Source of the DNA: Anaerostipes butyraticus
GTDB lineage: Bacteria; Bacillota; Clostridia; Lachnospirales; Lachnospiraceae
NCBI RefSeq assembly: GCF_016586355.1
Contig: NZ_BLYI01000042.1
Coordinates: forward strand, 1-43,167
Length of the DNA stretch: 43,167 bases
Direction: 5' to 3'
Both the position numbers and the translations under genes were made by a program. The notes beneath the pieces are model-generated. The model was not told where the DNA came from. It did no database searches and saw only the letters and a list, made by a program, of their open reading frames with translations. Positions 10,199 through 38,951 of this stretch are shown here, one piece after another (within the stretch, counting starts at the first letter, position 1; every line of letters begins with the position of its first letter).

Positions 10199-11392
10199 TT
10201 ACTCGATGATCTGAGCAACACGTCCTGATCCTACAGTACGTCCACCTTCACGGATAGCGAAAGATAATCCCTGAGCCATAGCGATTGGATGGATCAGTTC
10301 GATTGTCATTTCTACGTTATCACCAGGCATGCACATTTCTGTTCCTTCTGGTAATTCGATAACACCTGTTACGTCTGTTGTTCTGAAGTAGAACTGTGGA
10401 CGATAGTTGTTGAAGAATGGAGTATGACGTCCACCTTCATCTTTTGTTAATACGTAAACCTGAGCTGTGAATTTTGTATGGCATGTGATAGATCCTGGCT
10501 GGCAGAGAACCTGTCCTCTTTCGATTTCGTCTCTCTGAACACCACGAAGTAATGCACCAATGTTATCACCAGCCTGAGCTTCGTCTAACAGTTTACGGAA
10601 CATTTCTACACCAGTTACAACAACTTTTCTTGTTTCTTCTTTGATACCAACGATTTCAACTTCGTCAGATACGTGAAGAACACCGCTCTCTACTCTACCT
10701 GTAGCAACAGTACCACGTCCTGTGATAGAGAATACGTCCTCTACTGGCATAAGGAATGGTTTGTCTGTGTCACGCTGTGGATCTGGAATGTAGCTGTCAA
10801 CAGCATCCATAAGTTCCATGATCTTGTCTCCCCATTCTCCGCTTGGATCTTCAAGAGCTTTTAAAGCAGATCCCTGGATTACAGGAATATCATCACCTGG
10901 GAATTCGTATTCATTTAATAATTCACGAATTTCCATTTCTACTAATTCTAATAATTCTTCATCGTCTACCATGTCACATTTGTTCATGAATACAACGATA
11001 TAAGGAACACCTACCTGACGAGAAAGCAGGATGTGCTCTTTAGTCTGAGCCATAACACCATCAGTTGCAGCAACAACAAGGATAGCACCGTCCATCTGAG
11101 CAGCACCAGTGATCATGTTCTTTACATAGTCAGCATGACCTGGGCAGTCAACGTGAGCGTAATGACGTTTTTCTGTTTCATACTCAACGTGAGCTGTAGA
11201 GATTGTGATACCACGTTCTCTTTCTTCTGGAGCTTTATCGATATCTTCGAAGTTCTCAGCTTTGTTTCCTTCTACTCTTTCAGCCAGAACTTTTGTGATA
11301 GCTGCTGTTAAAGTTGTTTTACCATGGTCAACGTGTCCGATGGTACCAATGTTACAATGAGGTTTGGTTCTCTCAAACTTTTCTTTAGCCAT
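10199..11392 (-). CDS. tuf: elongation factor Tu
   Basis: A 397-residue EF-Tu, the GTPase that delivers aminoacyl-tRNA to the ribosome. Visible are the G1 loop GHVDHGKT (near 18-25), the effector region [13 protein letters not shown] (near 59-71), the G3 motif DCPGHADY (near 81-88), the G4 motif NKCD (near 136-139), and the usual C-terminus ending in [13 protein letters not shown] 11390-11392 was chosen because AAGGAGG lies nine bases upstream and the protein then begins [12 protein letters not shown] as in relatives. It follows fusA as in the str operon but has its own promoter and a structured leader. Confidence 0.98.
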
Positions 11393-11410
11393 TTTAAATG
11401 TCCTCCTTAT

Positions 11411-11475
11411 TCGCCCTACGGGCAATTACAAATAATAAAATTTACTACTTCTATATAGCCGCCCGTATAAGGGCT
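11411..11475 (-). other. structured leader of tuf
   Basis: Between the tuf promoter and its ribosome binding site, the minus strand has two GC-rich hairpins in otherwise A/T-rich DNA: GCCCTTATACGGGC and, directly before the Shine-Dalgarno, GCCCGTAGGGC. The arms of the two share GCCC/GGGC sequences and could pair alternatively. No known riboswitch class is recognised. Confidence 0.4.
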
Positions 11476-11487
11476 GTCCTAAATTTG

Positions 11488-11516
11488 ATTATATTTCATT
11501 TACATAAATATTTCAA
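11488..11516 (-). promoter_or_regulatory. tuf promoter
   Basis: On the minus strand TTGAAA (11511-11516) and TATAAT (11488-11493) are separated by 17 bp, inside the fusA-tuf gap. Confidence 0.8.
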
Positions 11517-11545
11517 GCCTATTTTCCTGAAAAAAGCGTGTTTTC

Positions 11546-13657
11546 TTACTTATCTGCAAGTACTTTTTCCTGTACATTCTTCGGCACTGGCTCATAGCTG
11601 CTGAAGAACATTGAATAGTTACCACGTCCCTGTGTTCTAGAACGCAGGTCTGTAGAATATCCAAACATTTCTGCAAGTGGAACGAATGCACGAACCATCT
11701 TACCGCCAGCAATGTCATCCATACCTTCGATACGTCCGCGGCGTGCATTGATATCACCAATTACATCACCCATGTATTCTTCCGGCATTGTAACCTCAAC
11801 CCTCATGATTGGCTCAAGAAGGATTGGATCTGCTTTCTGCATTGCTTCTTTAAATGCCATAGATCCGGCAATGTGGAATGCCATCTCACTAGAGTCGACA
11901 TCATGGTAAGATCCATCATATACTGTAGCTTTTACACCAAGTACTGGGAATCCACCTAAGACACCAGACTGAGCTGCTTCTTCGATACCTTCTCCAACTG
12001 CTGGGATGTATTCTTTTGGAATCGCACCACCGACAACAGTAGATTCGAACTTGAACAGTTCTTCTCCGTTGGCATCCATTGGCTCAAAGTGTACTTTACA
12101 GTGTCCATACTGTCCACGTCCACCAGACTGTTTTGCATATTTGCTGTCAACATCGACTGCTTTTGTAAATGTTTCTTTGTATGCTACCTGAGGAGCACCT
12201 ACGTTTGCTTCTACTTTGAACTCGCGAAGCAGACGGTCAACGATAATTTCAAGATGAAGTTCTCCCATTCCGGAAATGATCGTCTGTCCTGTCTCCTGAT
12301 CTGTATGAGCTCTGAATGTAGGATCTTCTTCTGCCAGTTTAGCAAGTGCTTCTGCCATCTTGCCCTGGTCTCCCTTAGTTTTAGGCTCGATCGCTACGTC
12401 GATAACCGGCTCTGGGAATTCCATGGATTCCAGAATAACTGGATACTTCTCATCACAGATTGTATCACCTGTTGTTGTTGTCTTAAATCCAACAGCAGCA
12501 GCGATATCTCCTGAGTATACAGTATCTAATTCTTCACGCTTGTTGGCATGCATCTGAAGGATACGTCCAACACGCTCTTTTTTGTTCTTTGTAGCATTTA
12601 ATACATAAGATCCAGATTTGCATGTTCCGGAATATACACGGAAGAATGCAAGTTTTCCAACGAATGGGTCTGTCATGATCTTAAATGCAAGTGCTGAGAA
12701 TGGCTCTTCATCAGAGGCATGTCTCTCGACTTCATTTCCATCTTCATCTACACCTTTGATAGATGGGATGTCTGTTGGAGCCGGCATATAGTCAAGGATT
12801 GCATCCAGTAATTTCTGAACACCCTTGTTTCTGTAAGCAGATCCGCAGCAGATTGGAACAGCTGTACATTCACATGTTCCTTTTCTTAAGGCTGCTTTTA
12901 ATGATTCAACAGATGGCTCATCTCCTTCTAAGTATTCCATCATAAGATCATCATCTAACTCACAGATCTTTTCGATCAGCTCTGTATGGTAAAGTTCTGC
13001 ATCTTCCTGCATATCTTCAGGAATATCAACAATAGAGATGTCCTCACCTTTTTCATCATTGTAGATGTAGGCTTTCATCTCGAACAGGTCGATGATTCCC
13101 TGGAAGTCATCTTCTTTACCAATCGGCAGCTGCAGTACAACCGCATTAGCGCCCAGACGTTCTTTGATCTGGTCTACAGCTCCGTAGAAGTTTGCACCTA
13201 AGATATCCATCTTATTGATAAATGCCATTCTTGGTACATTGTATGTGTCAGCCTGACGCCATACGTTCTCAGACTGAGGTTCTACTCCGCCTTTTGCACA
13301 GAACACACCAACTGCACCGTCAAGTACACGCAGGGAACGCTCTACTTCTACTGTGAAGTCTACGTGGCCTGGTGTATCAATGATGTTGATACGATGCTCC
13401 AGCGCACCTGGCTCTGGTTTGTTTTCTTTCTGGTGAGTCCAGTGGCATGTCGTAGCAGCGGAAGTAATTGTGATACCTCTTTCCTGCTCCTGCTCCATCC
13501 AGTCCATGGTAGCAGTACCATCATGAGTATCACCAATTTTATAGTTAACACCAGTATAATAAAGGATACGCTCTGTTAATGTTGTTTTACCAGCATCGAT
13601 ATGAGCCATAATACCAATATTTCTGGTTCTCTCTAATGGATATTCTCTTCCAGCCAA
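11546..13657 (-). CDS. fusA: elongation factor G
   Basis: A 703-residue EF-G, the translocation GTPase. Seen: the G1 loop AHIDAGKTT near 18-26, [11 protein letters not shown] near 60-70, DTPGHVDF near 91-98, NKMD near 145-148, the domain [12 protein letters not shown] region, the domain IV motif GGRGQYGH and the C-terminal [11 protein letters not shown]. The start codon is TTG (13655-13657), with AGGAGG eight bases upstream and the protein beginning [19 protein letters not shown]; no in-frame ATG fits better. A TTG start for such a highly expressed gene is unusual. It lies 59 bp after rpsG, without a visible promoter of its own. Confidence 0.97.
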
Positions 13658-13716
13658 GGTTTTTTCCTCCTATTGTTTTTAAGTAAAACATCCGCAGAAT
13701 AAATCTTTTGATAAGA

Positions 13717-14187
13717 TTAGAATCTGTAATGTGCGAACGCTTTGTTTGCTTCTGCCATTTTGTGCATATCTTCTTTTTTCTTTACAGATGCACCTGTATT
13801 GTTGGATGCATCAAGAATTTCTTTTGCAAGACGCTCTTCCATTGTTCTCTCTCCTCTTTTTCTGGAGAAAGTTGTCAGCCAGCGAAGTGCTAATGCCTGT
13901 CTTCTGTCCGGTCTTACGTCGATTGGCACCTGATAAGTAGCACCACCGATACGTCTGGCCTTTACTTCAAGAACTGGCATGATATTGTTCATAGCTTCTT
14001 CGAAGACCTCAAGAGCTGGTTTTCCAGCTTCCTGTTCTACACGGGCAAATGCTCCGTATACGATTTTCTGAGCAATTCCTTTTTTACCATCCAACATGAT
14101 GTTGTTGATTAACTTTGTCACAACCTTATTGTTGTAAATAGGATCTGCCAATACGTCTCTTTTCGCAACATGTCCTTTACGCGGCAC
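13717..14187 (-). CDS. rpsG: 30S ribosomal protein S7
   Basis: A 156-residue S7, which binds the 3' domain of 16S rRNA and nucleates assembly of the small-subunit head. Typical motifs: [33 protein letters not shown] and the C-terminal RRLAKEI-like segment, ending in FAHYRF. The start is GTG 14185-14187 (then [10 protein letters not shown]), with AAGGAGGG about seven bases upstream; this gives exactly the family length. A longer in-frame extension reaches into the rpsL-rpsG gap and is not credible. The 180-bp gap to rpsL is long for this operon and could hold the S7 autoregulatory structure, but I could not assign one. Confidence 0.97.
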
Positions 14188-14367
14188 GGTTCTTCCCTCC
14201 TTAATAATAATTAATTCATCGGTACTCATACTTTTAATTCTGTATGTTCGTGCAGGACCTATATATCTCCTGTAACCTTTTGTAGGAAACAATAAAGTTC
14301 CGGCACAACTATACAAGGTAGCGAAAGATCAAATCTTTACGCTGCTTTGTACCAATTTAGTTTTACT

Positions 14368-14784
14368 CTATTTTTTCTTCGGTCTCTTTGCTCCATATTT
14401 AGAACGAGCCTGCATTCTGTTAGCTACACCAGCTGTATCCAGTGTACCTCTAACGATATGGTAACGAGTACCTGGTAAGTCTTTTACACGACCACCACGA
14501 ATCAGAACAACGCTATGTTCCTGTAAGTTATGTCCTTCACCTGGGATATAGCTTGTTACTTCGATTCCGTTAGAAAGACGAACTCTGGCAATCTTACGAA
14601 GAGCTGAGTTAGGCTTTTTAGGAGTTGCAGTTTTAACAGCTGTACAAACACCTCTCTTCTGCGGAGAGCTTGTATTTGTAGCTTTCTTCTTTAAGGAGTT
14701 ATATCCTCTCTGAAGAGCTGGTGCTGTAGACTTCTTTACAGATGTCTTTCTCCCTTTTCTAACTAATTGGTTAAAAGTTGGCAT
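14368..14784 (-). CDS. rpsL: 30S ribosomal protein S12
   Basis: A 138-residue S12, the decoding-centre protein, with [15 protein letters not shown] and [13 protein letters not shown]. The lysines at the two classical streptomycin-resistance positions are the wild-type residues. ATG 14782-14784 is preceded by GGAGG with an eight-base spacer; an in-frame ATG five codons upstream overlaps the ribosome binding site itself. First gene of rpsL-rpsG-fusA. Confidence 0.97.
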
Positions 14785-14862
14785 TGATTTCACCTCCATA
14801 CATGTTTTCTACTTTTGGTTACTTCATTTCACCTAGTGACTCACGTGTTTTTTTGCACCCAA

Positions 14863-14902
14863 AAAGACACGCTAGATTAGTATATAACTCCAGCGTGTCT
14901 TT
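14863..14902. promoter_or_regulatory. 11-bp inverted repeat overlapping the str promoter
   Basis: AAAGACACGCT (14863-14873) and AGCGTGTCTTT (14892-14902) are perfect inverted copies 18 bp apart. One arm fills most of the -35/-10 spacer; the other covers the expected transcription start. Because one arm is not transcribed, this is more likely a DNA-level operator than an RNA hairpin. Confidence 0.55.
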
Positions 14903-14907
14903 GTCAA
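14879..14907 (-). promoter_or_regulatory. promoter of rpsL-rpsG-fusA
   Basis: On the minus strand TTGACA (14902-14907) and TATACT (14879-14884) with a 17-bp spacer lie about 95 bp before the rpsL start. Confidence 0.88.
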
Positions 14908-14925
14908 TACCTTTCTCCTGAATTA

Positions 14926-15051
14926 TTATAAATCTTTTACAGTACTTTTATGGATATCGGGAAAATCACCGCCATCTTTCCAGCTGCCGGAATCATGCTT
15001 TCTCGTCACATCATTCCTTCTTTCGTCCTGCAGCAGCTTTTTCGTTCTCAT
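14926..15051 (-). CDS. possible small hypothetical protein, 41 aa
   Basis: ATG 15049-15051 is preceded by GGAG with a six-base spacer and opens a 41-codon frame rich in charged residues (MRTKKLLQDERRND at the start, KSTVKDL at the end). It sits just upstream of the str promoter and downstream of the candidate long RNA. I recognise no family; length and composition do not exclude chance. Confidence 0.3.
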   Translation of the reverse strand: MRTKKLLQDERRNDVTRKHDSGSWKDGGDFPDIHKSTVKDL

Positions 15052-15088
15052 GGCTATCTCCGTCTTCTCATCTCCTACTGCTTCTCTT

Positions 15089-15766
15089 TAAAAAAATGAT
15101 TTCTTTACATCATCTTTTCGATTTATAACATATTCTGGAGAATTGATTAATGAGTTCCTTTTATCAAAACGCCCCACCGGTCAGTCGGTGTATCTTTTAA
15201 AATTTCCTCCTTTCGGAAATTATCGTTTTAAGAGTTCTTCAAAGTCTTTTTCTATCCTTTAAACTTTCTGCGGAATCTCTTTTGAGTTCCTGTCTGAAAT
15301 CCTTTTCGAATTTCCTTTCTCTTTAAAGAATTAAGACTCCTTTTGAAATCTCTTTGAAGTTTCTTTCTGAAACTCCTTTTAAAAGTCTTTTCCTGATTTT
15401 CTGAATCCCAAGAATTCTTTGAACCTTCTTTTCTCTTTGGAATCCATGCGGACATCTGAATCTTCCTTTTCCTTCCCAGGATGTTGTTATGATCCAGCTG
15501 TTGATTCTTATGATTTGTTCCGGTACTGAAAATCTTTGACTTCTTAAATTACTTCCTTTGTATCTTTTTTGATGAGGTTGACTCCTTTACCGTTCTTTCC
15601 GTTCAAAGACTTGCTGTATTCCGTCCGGGAATCGCAATATCTTGTTAAGTCAGTCTCATTCTTCCAATTAATACATCCACCGACTGCCGGTTTAGAAAGT
15701 TCTTTTCGAACTTTCGGGAGCATTTTAAGCTATTTCTTTCTTTATTAAGTTGTCTTTCTTTTGATG
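15089..15766 (-). ncRNA. candidate long structured non-coding RNA between rpoC and rpsL
   Basis: A consensus promoter (15772-15800) faces about 675 bp without a convincing gene. The predicted transcript is strongly purine-rich, with many AAGGAG- and AAAGAGATT-like words. It contains hairpins at 15695-15715 (8-bp stem), 15359-15373 (5 bp) and 15201-15221 (7 bp). Segments at 15677-15690 and 15177-15190, nearly 490 nt apart, are complementary over 13 bp with a single bulge and could close a large domain. A weak hairpin plus seven T lies at 15089-15113. A basic 67-codon frame at 15252-15455 lies inside and is probably a by-product of the purine bias. It matches no large RNA (rnpB, tmRNA, OLE) that I can recognise. 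Confidence 0.4.
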
Positions 15767-15771
15767 GTTTT

Positions 15772-15800
15772 ATTATATCAATTTCTGATTTATTTGTCAA
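15772..15800 (-). promoter_or_regulatory. consensus sigma-A promoter without a coding gene
   Basis: On the minus strand TTGACA (15795-15800), a 17-bp spacer and TATAAT (15772-15777): a perfect match to both boxes, among the best in the window, about 110 bp after the rpoC terminator. Confidence 0.8.
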
Positions 15801-15911
15801 GTTAAAAGTATTTTCTGATTTCTTAAGATATTCTATCGTAATATACTGAATACAGTACACATAATTTTCTTTTGCTTTGTTCGCTAAAAACTTTTCGTTG
15901 TTTTCCAAAAA

Positions 15912-15943
15912 GAAAAAAGCCAGGACATATCCCGGCTTTCCCC
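15912..15943 (-). terminator. terminator of rpoB-rpoC
   Basis: On the minus strand AAAGCCGGGA and TCCTGGCTTT form a stem around a short loop, followed by a T run, about 20 bp after the rpoC stop. Confidence 0.85.
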
Positions 15944-15961
15944 TTCATTTCATTTTATGAA

Positions 15962-18900
15962 TTATTTTTGAAGATCTGATTCTTCAAAATCAATTTCATC
16001 TTCGAAGTCAATTTCATCACCGATTGTAAAGTCTTCTACATCTGTGCTGATCTTGACATCGCGGTAACGTTTCATTCCGGTACCTGCCGGAATCAGTTTA
16101 CCAAGGATTACATTTTCCTTTAATCCTACCAATGGATCTACTTTTCCTTTGATTGCTGCGTCTGTCAGTACCTTTGTTGTCTCCTGGAATGATGCTGCAG
16201 ACAAGAAAGAATCTGTTGCCAGAGATGCCTTGGTAATACCAAGCATAATCTGTTCAGCCTGCGCAGGCTGAAGTCCTTTCTCTTCCATCTCTTTGTTCGT
16301 CTTTTCATATTCCAGAACATCAACCATAGCACCCGGAAGATAACTTGTATCTCCACCGTCTTCAATGCGGACTTTCTTCAGCATCTGGCGAACGATCACC
16401 TCTACGTGCTTATCGTTGATATCTACACCCTGGAGACGGTATACTCTCTGGACTTCACGGATCATATAATCCTGAACTGCACGGATTCCTTTGATGCGGA
16501 GCAGATCATGAGGGTTGATGGAACCTTCTGTCAGCTCGTCTCCGGCTTCCAGGATCTGTCCATCCTGCACTTTCAATCTGGATCCATAAGGAATCAGATA
16601 TGTCTTAACATCTCCAGTCTCGCGGTTGCTGATGATAACTTCACGTTTCTTCTTCGTATCCTTGATCTGGACTTCTCCGCCAAATTCTGCGATGATTGCC
16701 AGTCCTTTCGGCTTACGGGCTTCAAACAGCTCTTCGACACGAGGAAGACCCTGGGTGATATCATCACCGGCAACTCCGCCGGCATGGAACGTACGCATGG
16801 TAAGCTGTGTACCAGGTTCACCGATAGACTGAGCCGCGATGATTCCGACAGCCTCTCCTACCTGTACTGCCTGACCTGTTGCCATGTTGGATCCATAACA
16901 TTTTGCACATGCGCCCATTGGGGATTTACATGTAAGCATAGTACGAATCTTCACTCTTGTATATCCTGCGTCAACGATTGCTTTCGCGCGTTTTGGCGTG
17001 ATCATATGGTTTGCTTTTACGATAATTTCTCCTGTATTCGGATCTTTTACTTCCTCTGCGGCATATCTTCCGCTGATACGTTCTTCCAGACTTTCAATGA
17101 CTTCCTGTCCGTCCATAAACGCTTCCACATACATTCCCGGAATTTCTCCATCTTTTGCGCAGTCCTGTTCACGAACGATCAGATCCTGTGATACGTCAAC
17201 CAGACGACGGGTCAGGTATCCGGAATCGGCTGTACGCAGGGCTGTATCAGACAGACCTTTACGAGCTCCATGAGCAGAAATAAAGTACTCCAGAACGTCA
17301 AGACCTTCACGGAAATTTGACTTGATCGGCAGTTCGATCGTACGTCCTGATGTATCCGCCATCAATCCACGCATACCAGCCAGCTGTTTGATCTGCTGAT
17401 TAGAACCACGGGCTCCGGAATCGGCCATCATAAAGATGTTATTCAAACGATCCAGTCCATTGATCAGCTTATCTGTCAGCTCCTCATCGGCATCAAACCA
17501 TGTTTTTACAACAGCCTTATAACGTTCTTCTTCTGTCATAAGACCTCTCTTATACTGTTCTGAAATAAACTCTGCCTGTTTCTGGGCATCTTCCAGAATC
17601 TGAGGTTTCTCAGGCGGCACTGTCATATCGGAAATAGATACTGTCAGTGCTCCCTTTGTAGAATATTTATATCCGATTGCTTTGATGTCATCCAGGACTT
17701 CCGCAGATTTTGTCGCTCCATGAATATTGATGCAGCGGTCAAGAATCTGTTTTAACTGTTTCTTTCCTACATGGAAGTCAATCTCAAGCGCCAGAGCATT
17801 TTCCGGTTTGCTTCTGTCAACAAATCCAAGATCCTGAAGAATGATTTCATTAAACAGGATACGTCCCAGTGTACATTCTACGATCTGAGAAATCGGATTT
17901 CCATCTTTGTCGACTCCGGTACGTCTTACTTTGATACGGGCATGAAGTGTAATAACCCCATTTTCATAAGCAAGGTAAGCTTCGTTTTCGGATTTGAAGT
18001 ATTTTCCTTCTCCTTTGTCTCCTTCTTTTTCCAGTGTCAGATAGTAAATACCAAGTACCATATCCTGAGAAGGAACGGCTACCGGACCACCATCAGACGG
18101 TTTCAGCAGGTTGTTTGGAGATAACAGAAGGAAACGGCATTCTGCCTGTGCTTCTACTGTCAACGGAAGATGCACGGCCATCTGGTCTCCATCGAAGTCG
18201 GCATTGTACGCTGTACATACCAGAGGATGAAGCTTGATTGCTTTACCTTCTACAAGGATCGGCTCAAATGCCTGGATACCAAGTCTGTGCAGTGTCGGTG
18301 CACGGTTCAGCATAACCGGATGCTCTTTGATAACATCTTCCAGCACATCCCATACTTCCGGCTGCAGTTTTTCTACCATCTTCTTAGCTGACTTTATGTT
18401 ATGAGAAAGTTTTCTTTCTACCAGTTCTTTCATTACGAACGGCTTAAACAGCTCAATCGCCATTTCTTTTGGCAGACCGCACTGATAAATCTTCAGTTCC
18501 GGTCCTACGACGATTACAGAACGTCCGGAATAGTCAACACGTTTTCCAAGAAGGTTCTGACGGAAACGCCCCTGCTTACCTTTCAGCATATCAGAAAGAG
18601 ATTTTAATGCACGATTTCCCGGACCGGTGACCGGACGGCCTCTTCGTCCGTTATCGATCAGGGCGTCTACTGCTTCCTGAAGCATTCTCTTTTCATTGCG
18701 CACGATAATATCCGGTGCTCCAAGTTCAAGAAGCCGTTTCAAACGATTGTTTCGGTTGATGATTCTTCTGTACAGGTCATTTAAGTCTGATGTTGCAAAT
18801 CTTCCTCCGTCCAACTGTACCATCGGACGAATATCCGGCGGGATGACCGGGATTGCATCCAGGATCATCCACTCCGGTTTATTATCAGAGTTGCAGAAAG

Positions 18901-19567
18901 CTTCCACAACTTCAAGTCTCTTGATGATTCTTGCTCTCTTCTGCCCTGTCGCAGTCTTGAATTCGTCTTTCAGCTGTTTTGCTTCTGCTTCCAGATCGAT
19001 TGCCTGAAGCAGTTCTTTGACCGCCTCAGCTCCCATGCCAACACGGAAAGTATCTCCGTATTTTTCATATGCTTCTCTGTATTCTTTCTCTGTCAGAACC
19101 TGTTTATATGCAAGATCTGTGTCTCCCTGATCCAGCACGATATAGCAGGCAAAATACAGGACTTTTTCCAGGGTCCTAGGTGAAATGTCAAGCATTAATC
19201 CCATACGGCTTGGAATTCCTTTGAAATACCAGATATGAGAAACCGGTGCTGCCAATTCGATATGACCCATTCTTTCACGGCGGACATTAGATTTTGTTAC
19301 CTCAACTCCGCATCGGTCACAGACAACGCCTTTATAACGTACTTTTTTATACTTTCCGCAATGACATTCCCAGTCCTTGGTAGGTCCGAAAATCTTTTCG
19401 CAGAAAAGTCCGTCTTTTTCAGGCTTTAATGTTCGATAGTTGATCGTCTCAGGCTTTTTTACTTCTCCTCTTGACCACTCTCGGATCTTTTCCGGAGAAG
19501 CCAACCCGATTTTAATTGCATCAAATGAAATTTTGCTGCTTGAATATTCGTTGCTTGATTCTATCAT
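15962..19567 (-). CDS. rpoC: DNA-directed RNA polymerase subunit beta'
   Basis: A 1201-residue beta' subunit. Seen in order: N-terminal zinc finger cysteines in CHCGKY...CDRC (near 68-88), the [17 protein letters not shown] region (near 335), the absolutely conserved catalytic NADFDGDQM motif (near 455), trigger-loop and bridge-helix segments, the second zinc site [13 protein letters not shown], and an acidic C-terminal tail ([17 protein letters not shown]). AAGGAG precedes the ATG. It lies 39 bp after rpoB with no terminator between, so the two are co-transcribed. Confidence 0.98.
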
Positions 19568-19606
19568 TAAGGCTGCTCCTTCCTACTATCTATTGCTTAT
19601 CCATTT

Positions 19607-22600
19607 CTATAAGATTGTATTGTCTTCGCCTTCTGAGAGTTCTCCCTGTTTATATCCCAGGGCACCCAGCGCGGACTCACTTTCTTCATAATTATTGAAG
19701 ACGCCGTCGCCCTCAATCATCGGCGCAAGATCCTGATTTACATCTCCGCCGTCTACATTTTCTTTAATTTCAACTTCTGAAGCATTTTCATCCAGTACTT
19801 TAACATCCAGAGCCAGAGACTGGAACTCTTTCAGCAGTACTTTGAAGGATTCCGGTACACCCGGTTCAGGGATATTGTCGCCCTTGATAATAGCTTCATA
19901 AGTCTTCACTCTTCCTACAACATCATCGGATTTTACTGTCAGGATTTCCTGCAGTGTATAAGCTGCGCCATAAGCTTCCAGAGCCCATACCTCCATCTCT
20001 CCAAAACGCTGTCCGCCGAACTGAGCTTTTCCACCCAGCGGCTGCTGTGTTACGAGAGAGTATGGACCTGTAGAACGTGCATGGATCTTATCGTCTACCA
20101 AATGATGCAGTTTCAGATAATGCATGAATCCAATGGTTACAGGGCTGTCAAATTCTTCTCCTGTACGTCCGTCACGCAGCCTTACTTTTCCTGTTGTATC
20201 AATCGGAACGCCTTCCCATTCTTTTCTATGATCTCTGTTGTCATAGAGATACTTCATTACATCATCATTGACTTTATCTTTCCATTTTGCTTCAAATTCT
20301 TCCCATGTTGTATTGGCGTAGTCATTTGCCATCTGCAGAGTATCTGCGATATCATTCTCGTCCGCTCCGTTGAATACCGGTGTCGCAACGTTGAATCCCA
20401 GAACTTTTGCAGCCAGGGAAAGATGGATTTCCAGTACCTGTCCGATGTTCATTCGAGATGGCACACCCAGCGGATTCAGTACGATATCCAGCGGACGTCC
20501 ATTCGGCAGATACGGCATATCTTCAACCGGAAGAATACGGGAAATTACACCCTTGTTACCATGTCGTCCGGCCATCTTATCACCTACAGAGATTTTTCTC
20601 TTCTGAGCAATATAGACACGAACACTCTTGTTAACTCCCGGCGGAAGTTCATCTCCATTGTCCCTTGTAAACACTTTGGTATCCATTACAACACCATAAG
20701 CGCCGTGAGGAACCCTCAGAGAAGTATCCCTTACTTCCCTTGCTTTTTCACCAAAGATAGCACGCAGCAGTCTTTCTTCTGCTGTCAGTTCTGTCTCTCC
20801 TTTCGGAGTTACTTTACCGACCAGAATATCACCGGCACGCACTTCTGCACCAATACGGATGATTCCATTTTCATCCAGATCTTTCAGCGCGTCTTCGCTT
20901 AATCCTGCCAGATCTCTTGTAATTTCTTCCTGTCCTAATTTTGTATCCCGGGCTTCTGCCTCATATTCTTCAATATGAACAGATGTATATACGTCTTCCT
21001 GAACGAGACGCTCACTTAACAGTACCGCGTCCTCGTAGTTATAACCTTCCCATGTCATGAATCCAATCAGAGGATTTTTACCAAGAGCCATTTCTCCGTT
21101 GCAGGTAGAAGCTCCGTCTGCAAGGATATCTCCTTTTTCCACACGGTCTCCCACAAATACGATCGGTCTCTGGTTCATACAGTTGCCCTGGTTGCTTCGG
21201 GCAAATTTGATGACATTATATTCGTCTCTTCCGCCGTCATCATTCTTTACGACAATCTTTGTGCTGGTAGATCTTTCTACCACACCGCTGTTTTTCGCCG
21301 TAATGCAGACACCGGAATCATAAGCAGCCTTTGCTTCCATACCTGTTCCGACAACCGGCGCTTCTGTAGAAAGAAGCGGCACTGCCTGACGCTGCATGTT
21401 AGATCCCATCAGGGCACGGTTCGCATCGTCATTCTCCAGGAACGGAATCATAGATGTAGCAACAGAGAATACCATCTTTGGAGAAACGTCCATCAGATCG
21501 AGTCTCGCCTTGTCGAACTCGGATGTTTCTTCTCTGAATCGTCCGGATACATGAGCATGAACGAAATGTCCTTCTTCATCCAGCGGTTCGTTCGCCTGAG
21601 CTACAACGTAATTGTCTTCTTCATCTGCTGTCAGATATACAACTTTATTGGTTACGACCGGATCTTCCGGATCAGTTTTATCCAGAACACGGTATGGCGC
21701 CTCGATAAATCCATATTCGTTAATACGGGCATAAGTTGCCAGTGAGTTGATCAGACCGATGTTCGGACCTTCCGGCGTCTCGATCGGACACATTCTTCCA
21801 TAATGAGAATAATGAACGTCTCGTACTTCGAATCCGGCACGGTCACGGGACAGACCTCCCGGTCCCAGTGCAGACAGACGTCTCTTATGTGTCAGTTCAG
21901 ACAGCGGGTTGTTATGATCCATGAACTGTGACAGCTGGGAACTTCCGAAGAATTCCTTTACAGACGCTGTAACAGGCTTGATATTGATCAGGGACTGCGG
22001 TGTGATGGACTCAATGTCCTGTGTTGTCATTCTCTCACGTACCACTCTCTCCAGTCTGGAAAGGCCGATACGGTACTGATTCTGAAGCAGTTCTCCTACC
22101 GCACGGATTCTACGGTTTCCAAGGTGGTCAATATCATCATCGTTTCCAACTCCGTATTCCAGATGAATGTTATAGTTGATGGAAGCCAGGATATCTTCTT
22201 TTGTAATATGTTTTGGAATTAACTCATGTACATTCTTTTTCAGTACCTGTTTTAATTCTTCTCCTTCATATCCTTCTTCCAGAATCTTTTCAAGCACCGG
22301 ATAGAATACATTTTCATGTACTCCAATTTCTTCCGGATTAAAATCTACATATTCCGCAAGATTTACGGTCATATTAGATAATACTTTTGTATTTCCAGTC
22401 TCTGTCTGGATTACAACGCTCTGAACAGCTGCATTCTGAATCTTATCTGCCAGTTCCTTATCTACAACTGTTCCTGCCTCTGCCAGGATCTCTCCAGTTG
22501 ATGTATCAATAACATCTTCTGCCAGAGCAAATCCTGCGATACGGTTTTTAAGCGCTAATTTTTTATTAAATTTATAACGGCCGACCTTCGCGAGATCATA

Positions 22601-23404
22601 TCTGCGCGGATCGAAGAACATGCTGTTTACAAGGCTCTGTGCGCTGTCAACAGACAATGGTTCTCCCGGACGGATCTTCTTATACAGTTCCAGAAGACCG
22701 TCTTCATAATTGTCAGAAGGATCCTTTTCAATACTTGCGAGGATCTTTGGCTCTTCTCCAAATAATTCTTTAATTTCTGCATTGGTTCCGATGCCCAGAG
22801 CACGGATCAGCACAGTGATCGGAACTTTTCTTGTACGGTCCACACGTACGTTAAATACGTCATTGGAATCCGTCTCGTACTCCAGCCATGCTCCTCTGTT
22901 CGGAATCACAGTTGCTGAGTACAGTTTCTTTCCAATCTTATCATGAGCAATTCCATAATAGATTCCAGGGGAACGCACTAACTGGCTGACGATAACACGC
23001 TCTGCCCCGTTGATAATAAATGTTCCAGTTTCAGTCATCAAAGGAAGGTCGCCCATAAAAATATCATGCTGTTTGATTTCTTCTGTTTCCTTATTGTAAA
23101 GCCTTACCTTCACCTTCAAAGGTGCCGCATATGTCGCATCCCTCTCCTTGCACTCTTCGATTGAGTACTTGATATCATCCCTGCACAGCTGGTAGTCAAC
23201 AAATTCCAAGCTCAACTGATCGCTGTAGTCTTCAATCGGAGAAATGTCTTCAAAGACTTCCGCTAATCCTTCCTCTAGAAACCAATTATAAGAATCTTTC
23301 TGGATTTCGATCAGATTCGGCACTTCAAGGACATCATCCTGCCTGGCATAGCTGATACGCATTCCGGTACCTGATTTTATTGGCTGTATTCTGTTCTTTT
23401 CCAT
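19607..23404 (-). CDS. rpoB: DNA-directed RNA polymerase subunit beta
   Basis: A 1265-residue beta subunit. The rifampicin-binding region [20 protein letters not shown] and [13 protein letters not shown] carries the usual sensitive residues at the three main resistance positions (Asp, His, Ser). Other hallmarks: [33 protein letters not shown], and the C-terminal [20 protein letters not shown]. The C-terminus extends into an acidic tail ending [18 protein letters not shown] lies 11 bases before the ATG. It starts its own transcript, far from rplL. Confidence 0.98.
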
Positions 23405-38750: not shown

Positions 38751-38796
38751 TGAAATGGTGCACCTCCTTGATTTATTTTCGTGTACCGCCGCACCT

Positions 38797-38833
38797 AAAA
38801 AAGAAAAGCCCTCTGTCTCCAAAGACAAAGGGC
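38797..38833 (-). terminator. attenuator in the rplJ leader
   Basis: On the minus strand GCCCTTTGTCT and AGACAGAGGGC (one mismatch) form a hairpin followed by TTTTCTTTTTT, between the L10-binding leader and the rplJ ribosome binding site. Confidence 0.85.
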
Positions 38834-38844
38834 ATAATTAGCTC

Positions 38845-38915
38845 ATACTAATGATTCTCCTCGGTAGGTAGTTCTACGTTACGCCTTACGGCACCTACTG
38901 TCTTCGGCAGTAATA
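38845..38915 (-). ncRNA. ribosomal protein L10 leader
   Basis: The minus-strand leader contains GAAGACAGTAGGTGCCG and, further on, ACCTACCGAGGAGAATC. These match the conserved core of the L10(L12)4-binding leader of Bacillota (TAGGTG pairing with CACCTA-like sequence, then ACCGAGG). Excess L10 complex binding here would favour the attenuator downstream. Confidence 0.8.
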
Positions 38916-38922
38916 CTTTATA

Positions 38923-38951
38923 AAGATATCATACTTTGTTATATCTGTCAA
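38923..38951 (-). promoter_or_regulatory. promoter of rplJ-rplL
   Basis: On the minus strand TTGACA (38946-38951) and TATCTT (38923-38928), spacer 17 bp, just before the L10 leader. The -10 matches four of six bases. Confidence 0.65.

What the first reader, a model, noticed from the sequence alone, without database searches (positions are those of the whole stretch)
15089..15800. Consensus promoter driving a ~675-nt purine-rich, structured transcript with no convincing gene between rpoC and rpsL
After the rpoC terminator there is a perfect TTGACA-17-TATAAT promoter, but no credible protein gene follows. The predicted RNA has several hairpins (15695-15715, 15359-15373, 15201-15221). It also has a 13-bp complementarity with one bulge between 15677-15690 and 15177-15190, which would fold nearly 500 nt into one domain. 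In many Bacillota this interval carries the small L7Ae-like gene (ybxF/rplGB). A long RNA wedged between RNA polymerase and ribosomal operons, unlike rnpB, tmRNA or OLE RNA as far as I can tell, could be a new large RNA class or regulator.
Basis: partly seen in the sequence, partly recalled or inferred. Interest (0 to 1): 0.8.

Follow-up and report, generated by a model that had tools for sequence, protein, structure and literature searches.

The report
New large structured RNA beside rpsL
Between the RNA-polymerase and ribosomal-protein operons of this bacterium lies what looks like the gene for a long, elaborately folded RNA that makes no protein, was found only in a few close relatives, and matches no catalogued RNA family, so it may be a new class of large bacterial RNA.

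Summary
A 12-of-12 consensus promoter (15800-15772, minus) is followed by no credible gene. The T run at 15096-15089 lies inside the fold.

Homologues sit at the same place in 6 of 11 genus genomes: 5 distinct sequences, 705-905 nt. The sixth is identical, most likely through a recombination tract of about 13 kb. A core model found nothing credible outside the genus in overlapping samples of 397 family, 295 order and 391 class genomes. Rfam has no match to it.

The five share two long-range domains with compensatory changes: consensus energies 11-12 sd below column shuffles, full-length folds 5.6-9.9 sd below sequence shuffles. No reading frame is favoured.

I conclude: a clade-restricted, stand-alone large structured RNA. 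RNase P, tmRNA, CsrA sponge and protein gene are excluded or unsupported. Function is inferred: most likely a scaffold with a variable purine-rich linker. Main rival: cis control of rpsL, whose promoter lies within the terminal hairpin. No transcript data were available.

The parts
15772..15800 (-). consensus promoter TTGACA-17-TATAAT of the RNA; 22 of 29 columns from -35 to -10 and 18 of the 27 columns upstream of the -35 are invariant in five species, against 6 of 33 further upstream
14861..15765 (-). inferred transcript, about 905 nt (start set 7 nt after the -10, end at the T run after the terminator-like hairpin)
   Evidence: start and end inferred, not measured
15164..15728 (-). domain 1, closed by P1 (15728-15717 / 15175-15164) and P3 (15691-15678 / 15190-15176), with hairpin P2 at 15715-15695
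15573..15658 (-). 86-nt core, 88% mean column identity over five species; used for covariance model R1
15195..15558 (-). variable purine-rich linker (364 nt here, 130-235 nt in the four relatives), here with a series of short hairpins
14913..15142 (-). domain 2, closed by a long-range helix (15142-15120 / 14934-14913)
14989..15017 (-). apical hairpin of domain 2: covarying stem, invariant loop GACGAGAAA (15007-14999)
14861..14902 (-). terminator-like hairpin (14902-14889 / 14876-14863) with a run of five T; two pairs changed on both sides in G302
   Evidence: not listed by the scan, which allows loops of 3-8 only
14879..14907 (-). rpsL promoter TTGACA-17-TATACT (11 of 12): -35 at the foot of the 5' arm, -10 in the loop or tip of that hairpin

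Best explanation
This is the gene of a stand-alone, probably abundant, large structured noncoding RNA that arose within one clade of one Lachnospiraceae genus. Shown by comparison: a conserved promoter, two long-range closed domains with compensatory changes, a nearly invariant core and an invariant apical loop. Inferred: it is transcribed strongly from its own promoter, stops at the hairpin before rpsL, and acts in trans as a scaffold. The rigid domains would bind a protein or other copies of the RNA through the core and the GACGAGAAA loop, while the length-variable purine-rich linker would be a tether or exposed surface. Existence of the structured RNA about 0.95; stand-alone unit about 0.8; trans-acting scaffold about 0.5.
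For: Same place in 6 of 11 genus genomes. Consensus fold beats 200 of 200 column shuffles for each domain (z -10.9 and -12.0; 276/305 and 100/115 cells paired; 10 pairs per domain with both sides changed). Sense strand fits better than antisense (z -10.2 against -7.3 for domain 1; -13.1 against -2.8 for domain 2; 100 shuffles each). Five full-length folds at z -5.6 to -9.9. Consensus promoter with a conserved upstream stretch. The ten pairs counted in the hairpin before rpsL form in 50 of 50 cells. No competing antiterminator pairing clearly above shuffles, which favours a simple 3' end over an attenuator.
Against: No transcript data. Only five distinct sequences, two of them close (window and G301), and changes on one tree are not independent. 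The consensus structure was derived from the same sequences. On the core alone RNAalifold's covariation term was slightly unfavourable (0.24) and several cells were broken. Antisense domain 1 also folds well. In 5 of 5 the RNA abuts the rpsL promoter, which also fits a cis role. No partner is known; the scaffold step rests on analogy.
Confidence: 0.55

Rival explanations
1. A cis-acting control element of the rpsL-rpsG-fusA-tuf operon: either a very long leader, or a transcription unit whose firing and termination interfere with the rpsL promoter embedded in its terminal hairpin.
For: In 5 of 5 distinct carriers the rpsL -35 lies at the foot of the terminal hairpin and the -10 in its loop or tip. 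In the two non-carriers with a short rpoC-rpsL gap, G300 and G304, I see a rpsL promoter without this hairpin and T run; by eye other inverted repeats lie around and after their -10 (sequence).
Against: Antiterminator pairing is within about 1.3 sd of shuffles in five of five. The domains are far larger than r-protein leaders known to me (recalled). rpsL has its own near-consensus promoter. Shared ancestry alone could explain the shared arrangement.
Confidence: 0.25
2. A decoy RNA: its AAAGGAG-like sequences titrate 30S subunits, or its GGA motifs titrate an RNA-binding regulator such as CsrA.
For: AAAGGAG occurs 4 times in the window RNA (0.6 expected from shuffles) and 1, 2, 2 and 2 times in the others (0.3-0.5 expected); ANGGA is 16 against 10.0 and GGA 31 against 24.2 in the window RNA.
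Against: CsrA is in 0 of 11 genomes of the genus. GGA and ANGGA are not enriched in the four relatives. The core AAAGGAG is partly paired in the folds.
Confidence: 0.08
3. A small-protein gene, or several, in the interval.
For: A 41-aa ORF (15051-14926) has a GGAG before its ATG, and G301 has a similar open frame with an earlier ATG. Stop-to-stop frames without a start reach 98 aa in the window RNA.
Against: Between-species protein similarities occur in frames of both strands, about as strong on the antisense strand (best E 2e-15) as on the sense strand (best E 7e-15), so they reflect DNA similarity. By eye the 41-aa frame meets a stop right after the conserved block in G243 and G302, and its ATG is ATA in G301 (sequence). 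No codon-substitution test was run.
Confidence: 0.02
4. Purine-rich intergenic DNA that folds by chance, or the remnant of a mobile element.
For: Purine content 0.63-0.65; a variable linker; other insertions occur at this place in relatives.
Against: Compensatory changes and fold z-scores; one core match per carrier genome; no match in phages and two 44-nt chance matches in plasmids.
Confidence: 0.03

Closest known systems
OLE, ROOL and GOLLD RNAs (large ornate bacterial RNAs)
   Same: Large size and extensive predicted structure; ROOL has a disordered linker and GOLLD a linker region (passages of PMC12286853 seen).
   Different: No match to these families in Rfam. ROOL and GOLLD are encoded in phages and prophages (same passages); this RNA has no match among 50,697 phage records. 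Found in one genus only.
raiA motif RNA (ModT)
   Same: Conserved structured RNA of Bacillota (abstract of PMC11706538 seen in the listing).
   Different: ModT is conserved in more than 2,500 species (same abstract); this RNA was found in one genus and has no Rfam match.
RNase P RNA, tmRNA
   Same: Large housekeeping RNAs.
   Different: RNase P RNA is elsewhere in 11 of 11 genomes; ARAGORN finds no tmRNA in the window (the rest of the genome was not scanned for it).
Ribosomal-protein leaders
   Same: Lies upstream of a ribosomal-protein operon.
   Different: Own promoter and 3' hairpin, about 905 nt, no clear antiterminator. Three passages of a survey of 20 leader candidates (PMC7247131) name none for an rpoC-rpsL interval.

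Membership tests
OLE / ROOL / GOLLD | match to the family covariance model | tested here: not met
   no match to these at gathering score in the window, none at E up to 5 in the interval or in five genus loci
OLE / ROOL / GOLLD | homo-oligomeric assembly | not testable with these tools
   needs native gel or cryo-EM
ROOL / GOLLD | carried by phages or prophages | tested here: not met
   between rpoC and rpsL in the six carriers; no phage match
RNase P RNA | the genome's RNase P RNA | tested here: not met
   found elsewhere in 11 of 11 genomes
tmRNA | ARAGORN match with tag peptide | tested here: not met
   none in the window
CsrB-type sponge | CsrA present in the genome | tested here: not met
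   0 of 11
CsrB-type sponge | excess of GGA motifs | tested here: not met
   excess in the window RNA only, not in four relatives
attenuating leader / riboswitch | antiterminator competing with the terminator | tested here: not met
   five of five within about 1.3 sd of mononucleotide shuffles
attenuating leader / riboswitch | downstream gene expression depends on the RNA | not testable with these tools
   needs reporter assay
stand-alone structured ncRNA | compensatory base changes across species | tested here: met
   five sequences, no R-scape
stand-alone structured ncRNA | discrete transcript | not testable with these tools
   no RNA-seq available

The most novel reading that the evidence does not exclude
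A new class of large ornate RNA that arose within one genus and works as an RNA-only oligomer or RNP scaffold, with an invariant core and loop as binding sites and a fast-evolving purine-rich linker, placed so that its termination and rpsL initiation share one piece of DNA.
Probability: 0.35. Interest if true: 0.85.

Novelty: new variant of a known kind. Interest (0 to 1): 0.72.

Why it matters
Very large structured RNAs of bacteria are few, and several have unknown functions. One confined to a single clade, with carriers and non-carriers in one genus and at a fixed chromosomal place, would allow study of how such an RNA arises and what it does by comparing near relatives. If it is abundant, as the consensus promoter suggests, it should be easy to purify with its partner. 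The shared promoter-terminator DNA is also a simple layout for linking an RNA to ribosome synthesis.

Tried and rejected
Rfam searches at gathering and relaxed thresholds on the interval and five genus loci gave only chance-level matches to unrelated families; the whole window gave only an L10 leader elsewhere. Phage and plasmid collections: none, and two 44-nt matches in Borrelia. Viral contigs: 35 stretches matched a pattern of the 67-aa ORF but none encodes a relative; one core pattern matched one contig, without the rest of the core, and the other matched none. Weak R1 matches were rejected as chance: G304 (E 0.21, beside a 427-aa ORF) and G685 and G517 (E about 0.02, inside ORFs), with only short or 3-mismatch copies of the RNA's other motifs nearby.

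I considered that other bacteria might carry an analogue here. Of 108 rpsL loci held outside the genus (Lachnospiraceae and other Bacillota), 56 had no rpoC end in range. Of the other 52, 46 had 650 nt or less between rpoC and rpsL and six had more. Of those six, four have an ORF of at least 90 aa ending within 234 nt of rpsL, and two (L110, L069) have 728 and 584 nt without one. Those two were not studied.

CsrA sponge, RNase P and L7Ae-gene readings were tested and dropped. A pseudoknot, a kink-turn and a likeness of the apical loop to the sarcin-ricin loop were considered by eye only and are not claimed. Complementarity to rRNA was not tested. G299 was left out of the covariation counts because its RNA is identical to the window's. 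In the duplex test the 5' window of G302 was placed by hand, because of an insertion there.

Full report
WHAT IS THERE. On the minus strand, between rpoC (19567-15962; five RNA polymerase Rpb1 domains) and rpsL (S12; PF00164), a 12-of-12 TTGACA-17-TATAAT promoter with a TG before the -10 lies at 15800-15772. The longest minus-strand ORF overlapping the stretch is 87 aa and starts upstream of the promoter; the longest starting inside the RNA is 67 aa. The three interval ORFs tested have no Pfam match. The 677-nt stretch folds at -159.5 kcal/mol, z -4.1 against 20 shuffles.

RELATIVES. A DNA search found homologues in 6 of 11 genomes of the genus, the window's own included, and in each the RNA lies between rpoC and rpsL. 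Of the five others, two have a short rpoC-rpsL gap (G300, G304), one has a 413-aa ORF before rpsL (G303), and two have c-di-GMP-I riboswitches and a stretch of N (G306, G307), so for these two absence is not certain at this place, though R1 found no match in their genomes. G299 is identical to the window over the interval. But in 300-nt bins its identity is 95-100% only from 10.2 to 23.4 kb (95-98% over rpsG-rpsL), against 70-84% from 23.7 to 27.3 kb (one 16-base bin apart) and 83-94% from 9.3 to 10.2 kb. The identity therefore most likely reflects a recent recombination tract, and G299 is not counted as separate evidence. Five distinct RNAs remain: window, G301, G305, G243 and G302. On a tree of rpsL and the next 1.5 kb the carriers form one clade with support 0.997, the rest of the genus being poorly resolved; the recombination tract affects the window-G299 branch.

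TRUE EXTENT. The predicted RNAs are 905, 778, 712, 705 and 753 nt (window, G301, G305, G243, G302). The start (7 nt after the -10) and the end (U run) are inferred. The T run at 15096-15089 is on the 3' side of an A-U-rich hairpin inside domain 2.

STRUCTURE. Domain 1 is closed by P1 and P3, with hairpin P2 between their 5' arms, an 86-nt core (88% mean column identity) and a variable linker of 130-364 nt. Domain 2 is closed by a long helix whose sequence varies between species. Consensus folding of domain 1 without its linker gave 61 pairs, 276 of 305 cells paired, and 10 pairs with both sides changed. Domain 2 gave 23 pairs, 100 of 115 cells, and 10 such pairs; this alignment caught only the first 6 pairs of its closing helix. 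In both, 0 of 200 column shuffles folded as well. By helix, counted on arms that I chose from the folds: P3 39 of 45 cells with 6 pairs changed on both sides; apical stem 48 of 50 with 6; terminator (10 pairs) 50 of 50 with 2; P2 34 of 35 with 4; first 6 bp of the domain 2 closing helix 30 of 30 with 4. The structure was derived from these same sequences, so the cell counts lean its way; the shuffles address this only in part. RNAalifold on the core alone gave a slightly unfavourable covariation term (0.24), 4 of 25 pairs with both sides changed and several broken cells; I think this is partly misalignment of G243 and G302, but it warns against over-reading the core hairpin. Sense folds better than antisense, though antisense domain 1 is still at z -7.3. 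Each full RNA folds better than 25 of 25 shuffles, z -5.6 to -9.9. Duplex tests of the closing arms gave 0-9 of 1000 shuffles as good over ten tests.

NOT A GENE. Protein-level similarity between species occurs in frames of both strands with similar strength, as expected of conserved DNA rather than of a coding frame.

DISTRIBUTION. Covariance model R1 of the core found 2 of 397 family genomes (both of this genus), 3 of 295 order genomes at E 0.1 (the window's own and two chance matches inside ORFs) and 1 of 391 class genomes at E 0.001 (its own). These searches use stricter filters, and the samples overlap. In the genus 7 of 11 had a match at E 1 or less: six carriers at 5.4e-19 or better and one chance match. 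An earlier DNA search of 299 family genomes gave 27 with a match at E 0.01: the two of this genus and 25 with short matches at E 4e-4 to 9e-3, which I take as chance. No organism names are given.

MECHANISM. The consensus promoter, with 18 of the 27 columns upstream of its -35 invariant, suggests an abundant and perhaps regulated RNA. The 3' hairpin has no antiterminator partner clearly above shuffles, so it reads as a plain 3' end. The rpsL promoter spans that hairpin in 5 of 5, which is the best argument for a cis role. CsrA is absent (0 of 11). L7Ae has one copy elsewhere in 11 of 11, and RNase P RNA lies elsewhere in 11 of 11. An invariant loop held by a changing stem suggests a binding site; a conserved frame around a variable linker resembles ROOL and GOLLD in outline (passages of PMC12286853). 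I therefore favour a trans-acting scaffold, with cis control of rpsL as the main rival.

NOVELTY. Seven searches of the paper library listed no title on an RNA at this place; the long listings were capped at 10-20 titles. Passage searches of PMC8040213, PMC8632094 and PMC7247131 for rpsL, rpoC and Anaerostipes gave nothing relevant. PMC8040213 reports 3161 candidate RNAs from human microbiomes; its supplementary lists could not be read, so a piece of this RNA may be listed there. One relevant 2017 survey (PMC5737381) is not held.

Noticed in passing
window 10200-23400: The tuf-to-rpoB stretch is 95-100% identical to G299 (mostly 99-100%; 95-98% over rpsG-rpsL) while flanking sequence is 70-94% identical: probably a recent recombination tract of about 13 kb between two species.
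   Followed up: partly
L123 2781-3107 and L126 346-429: Two relatives without the RNA have c-di-GMP-I riboswitches (two in L123) between rpoC and rpsL, next to a stretch that reads N.
   Followed up: partly
L032 853-1112 and 1236-1387: Between rpoC and the RNA promoter G302 has two long inverted repeats (64-nt arms 89% and 32-nt arms 94% complementary), like small palindromic insertion elements.
   Followed up: partly
L030 1749-1797: G301's linker holds six perfect head-to-tail copies of the 8-nt unit AGAGATCA, a sign of fast length change.
   Followed up: partly
window 38793-38925: An L10 leader (RF00557) well above its gathering score, the only Rfam match in the window.
   Followed up: no
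window 15801-15827: Of the 27 columns upstream of the RNA's -35, 18 are invariant in five species; by eye, AATCAGA-like words lie on both sides of the -35: a possible UP element or regulator site.
   Followed up: partly
L110 and L069, upstream of rpsL: Two loci outside the genus have 728 and 584 nt before rpsL without an ORF of 90 aa.
   Followed up: no
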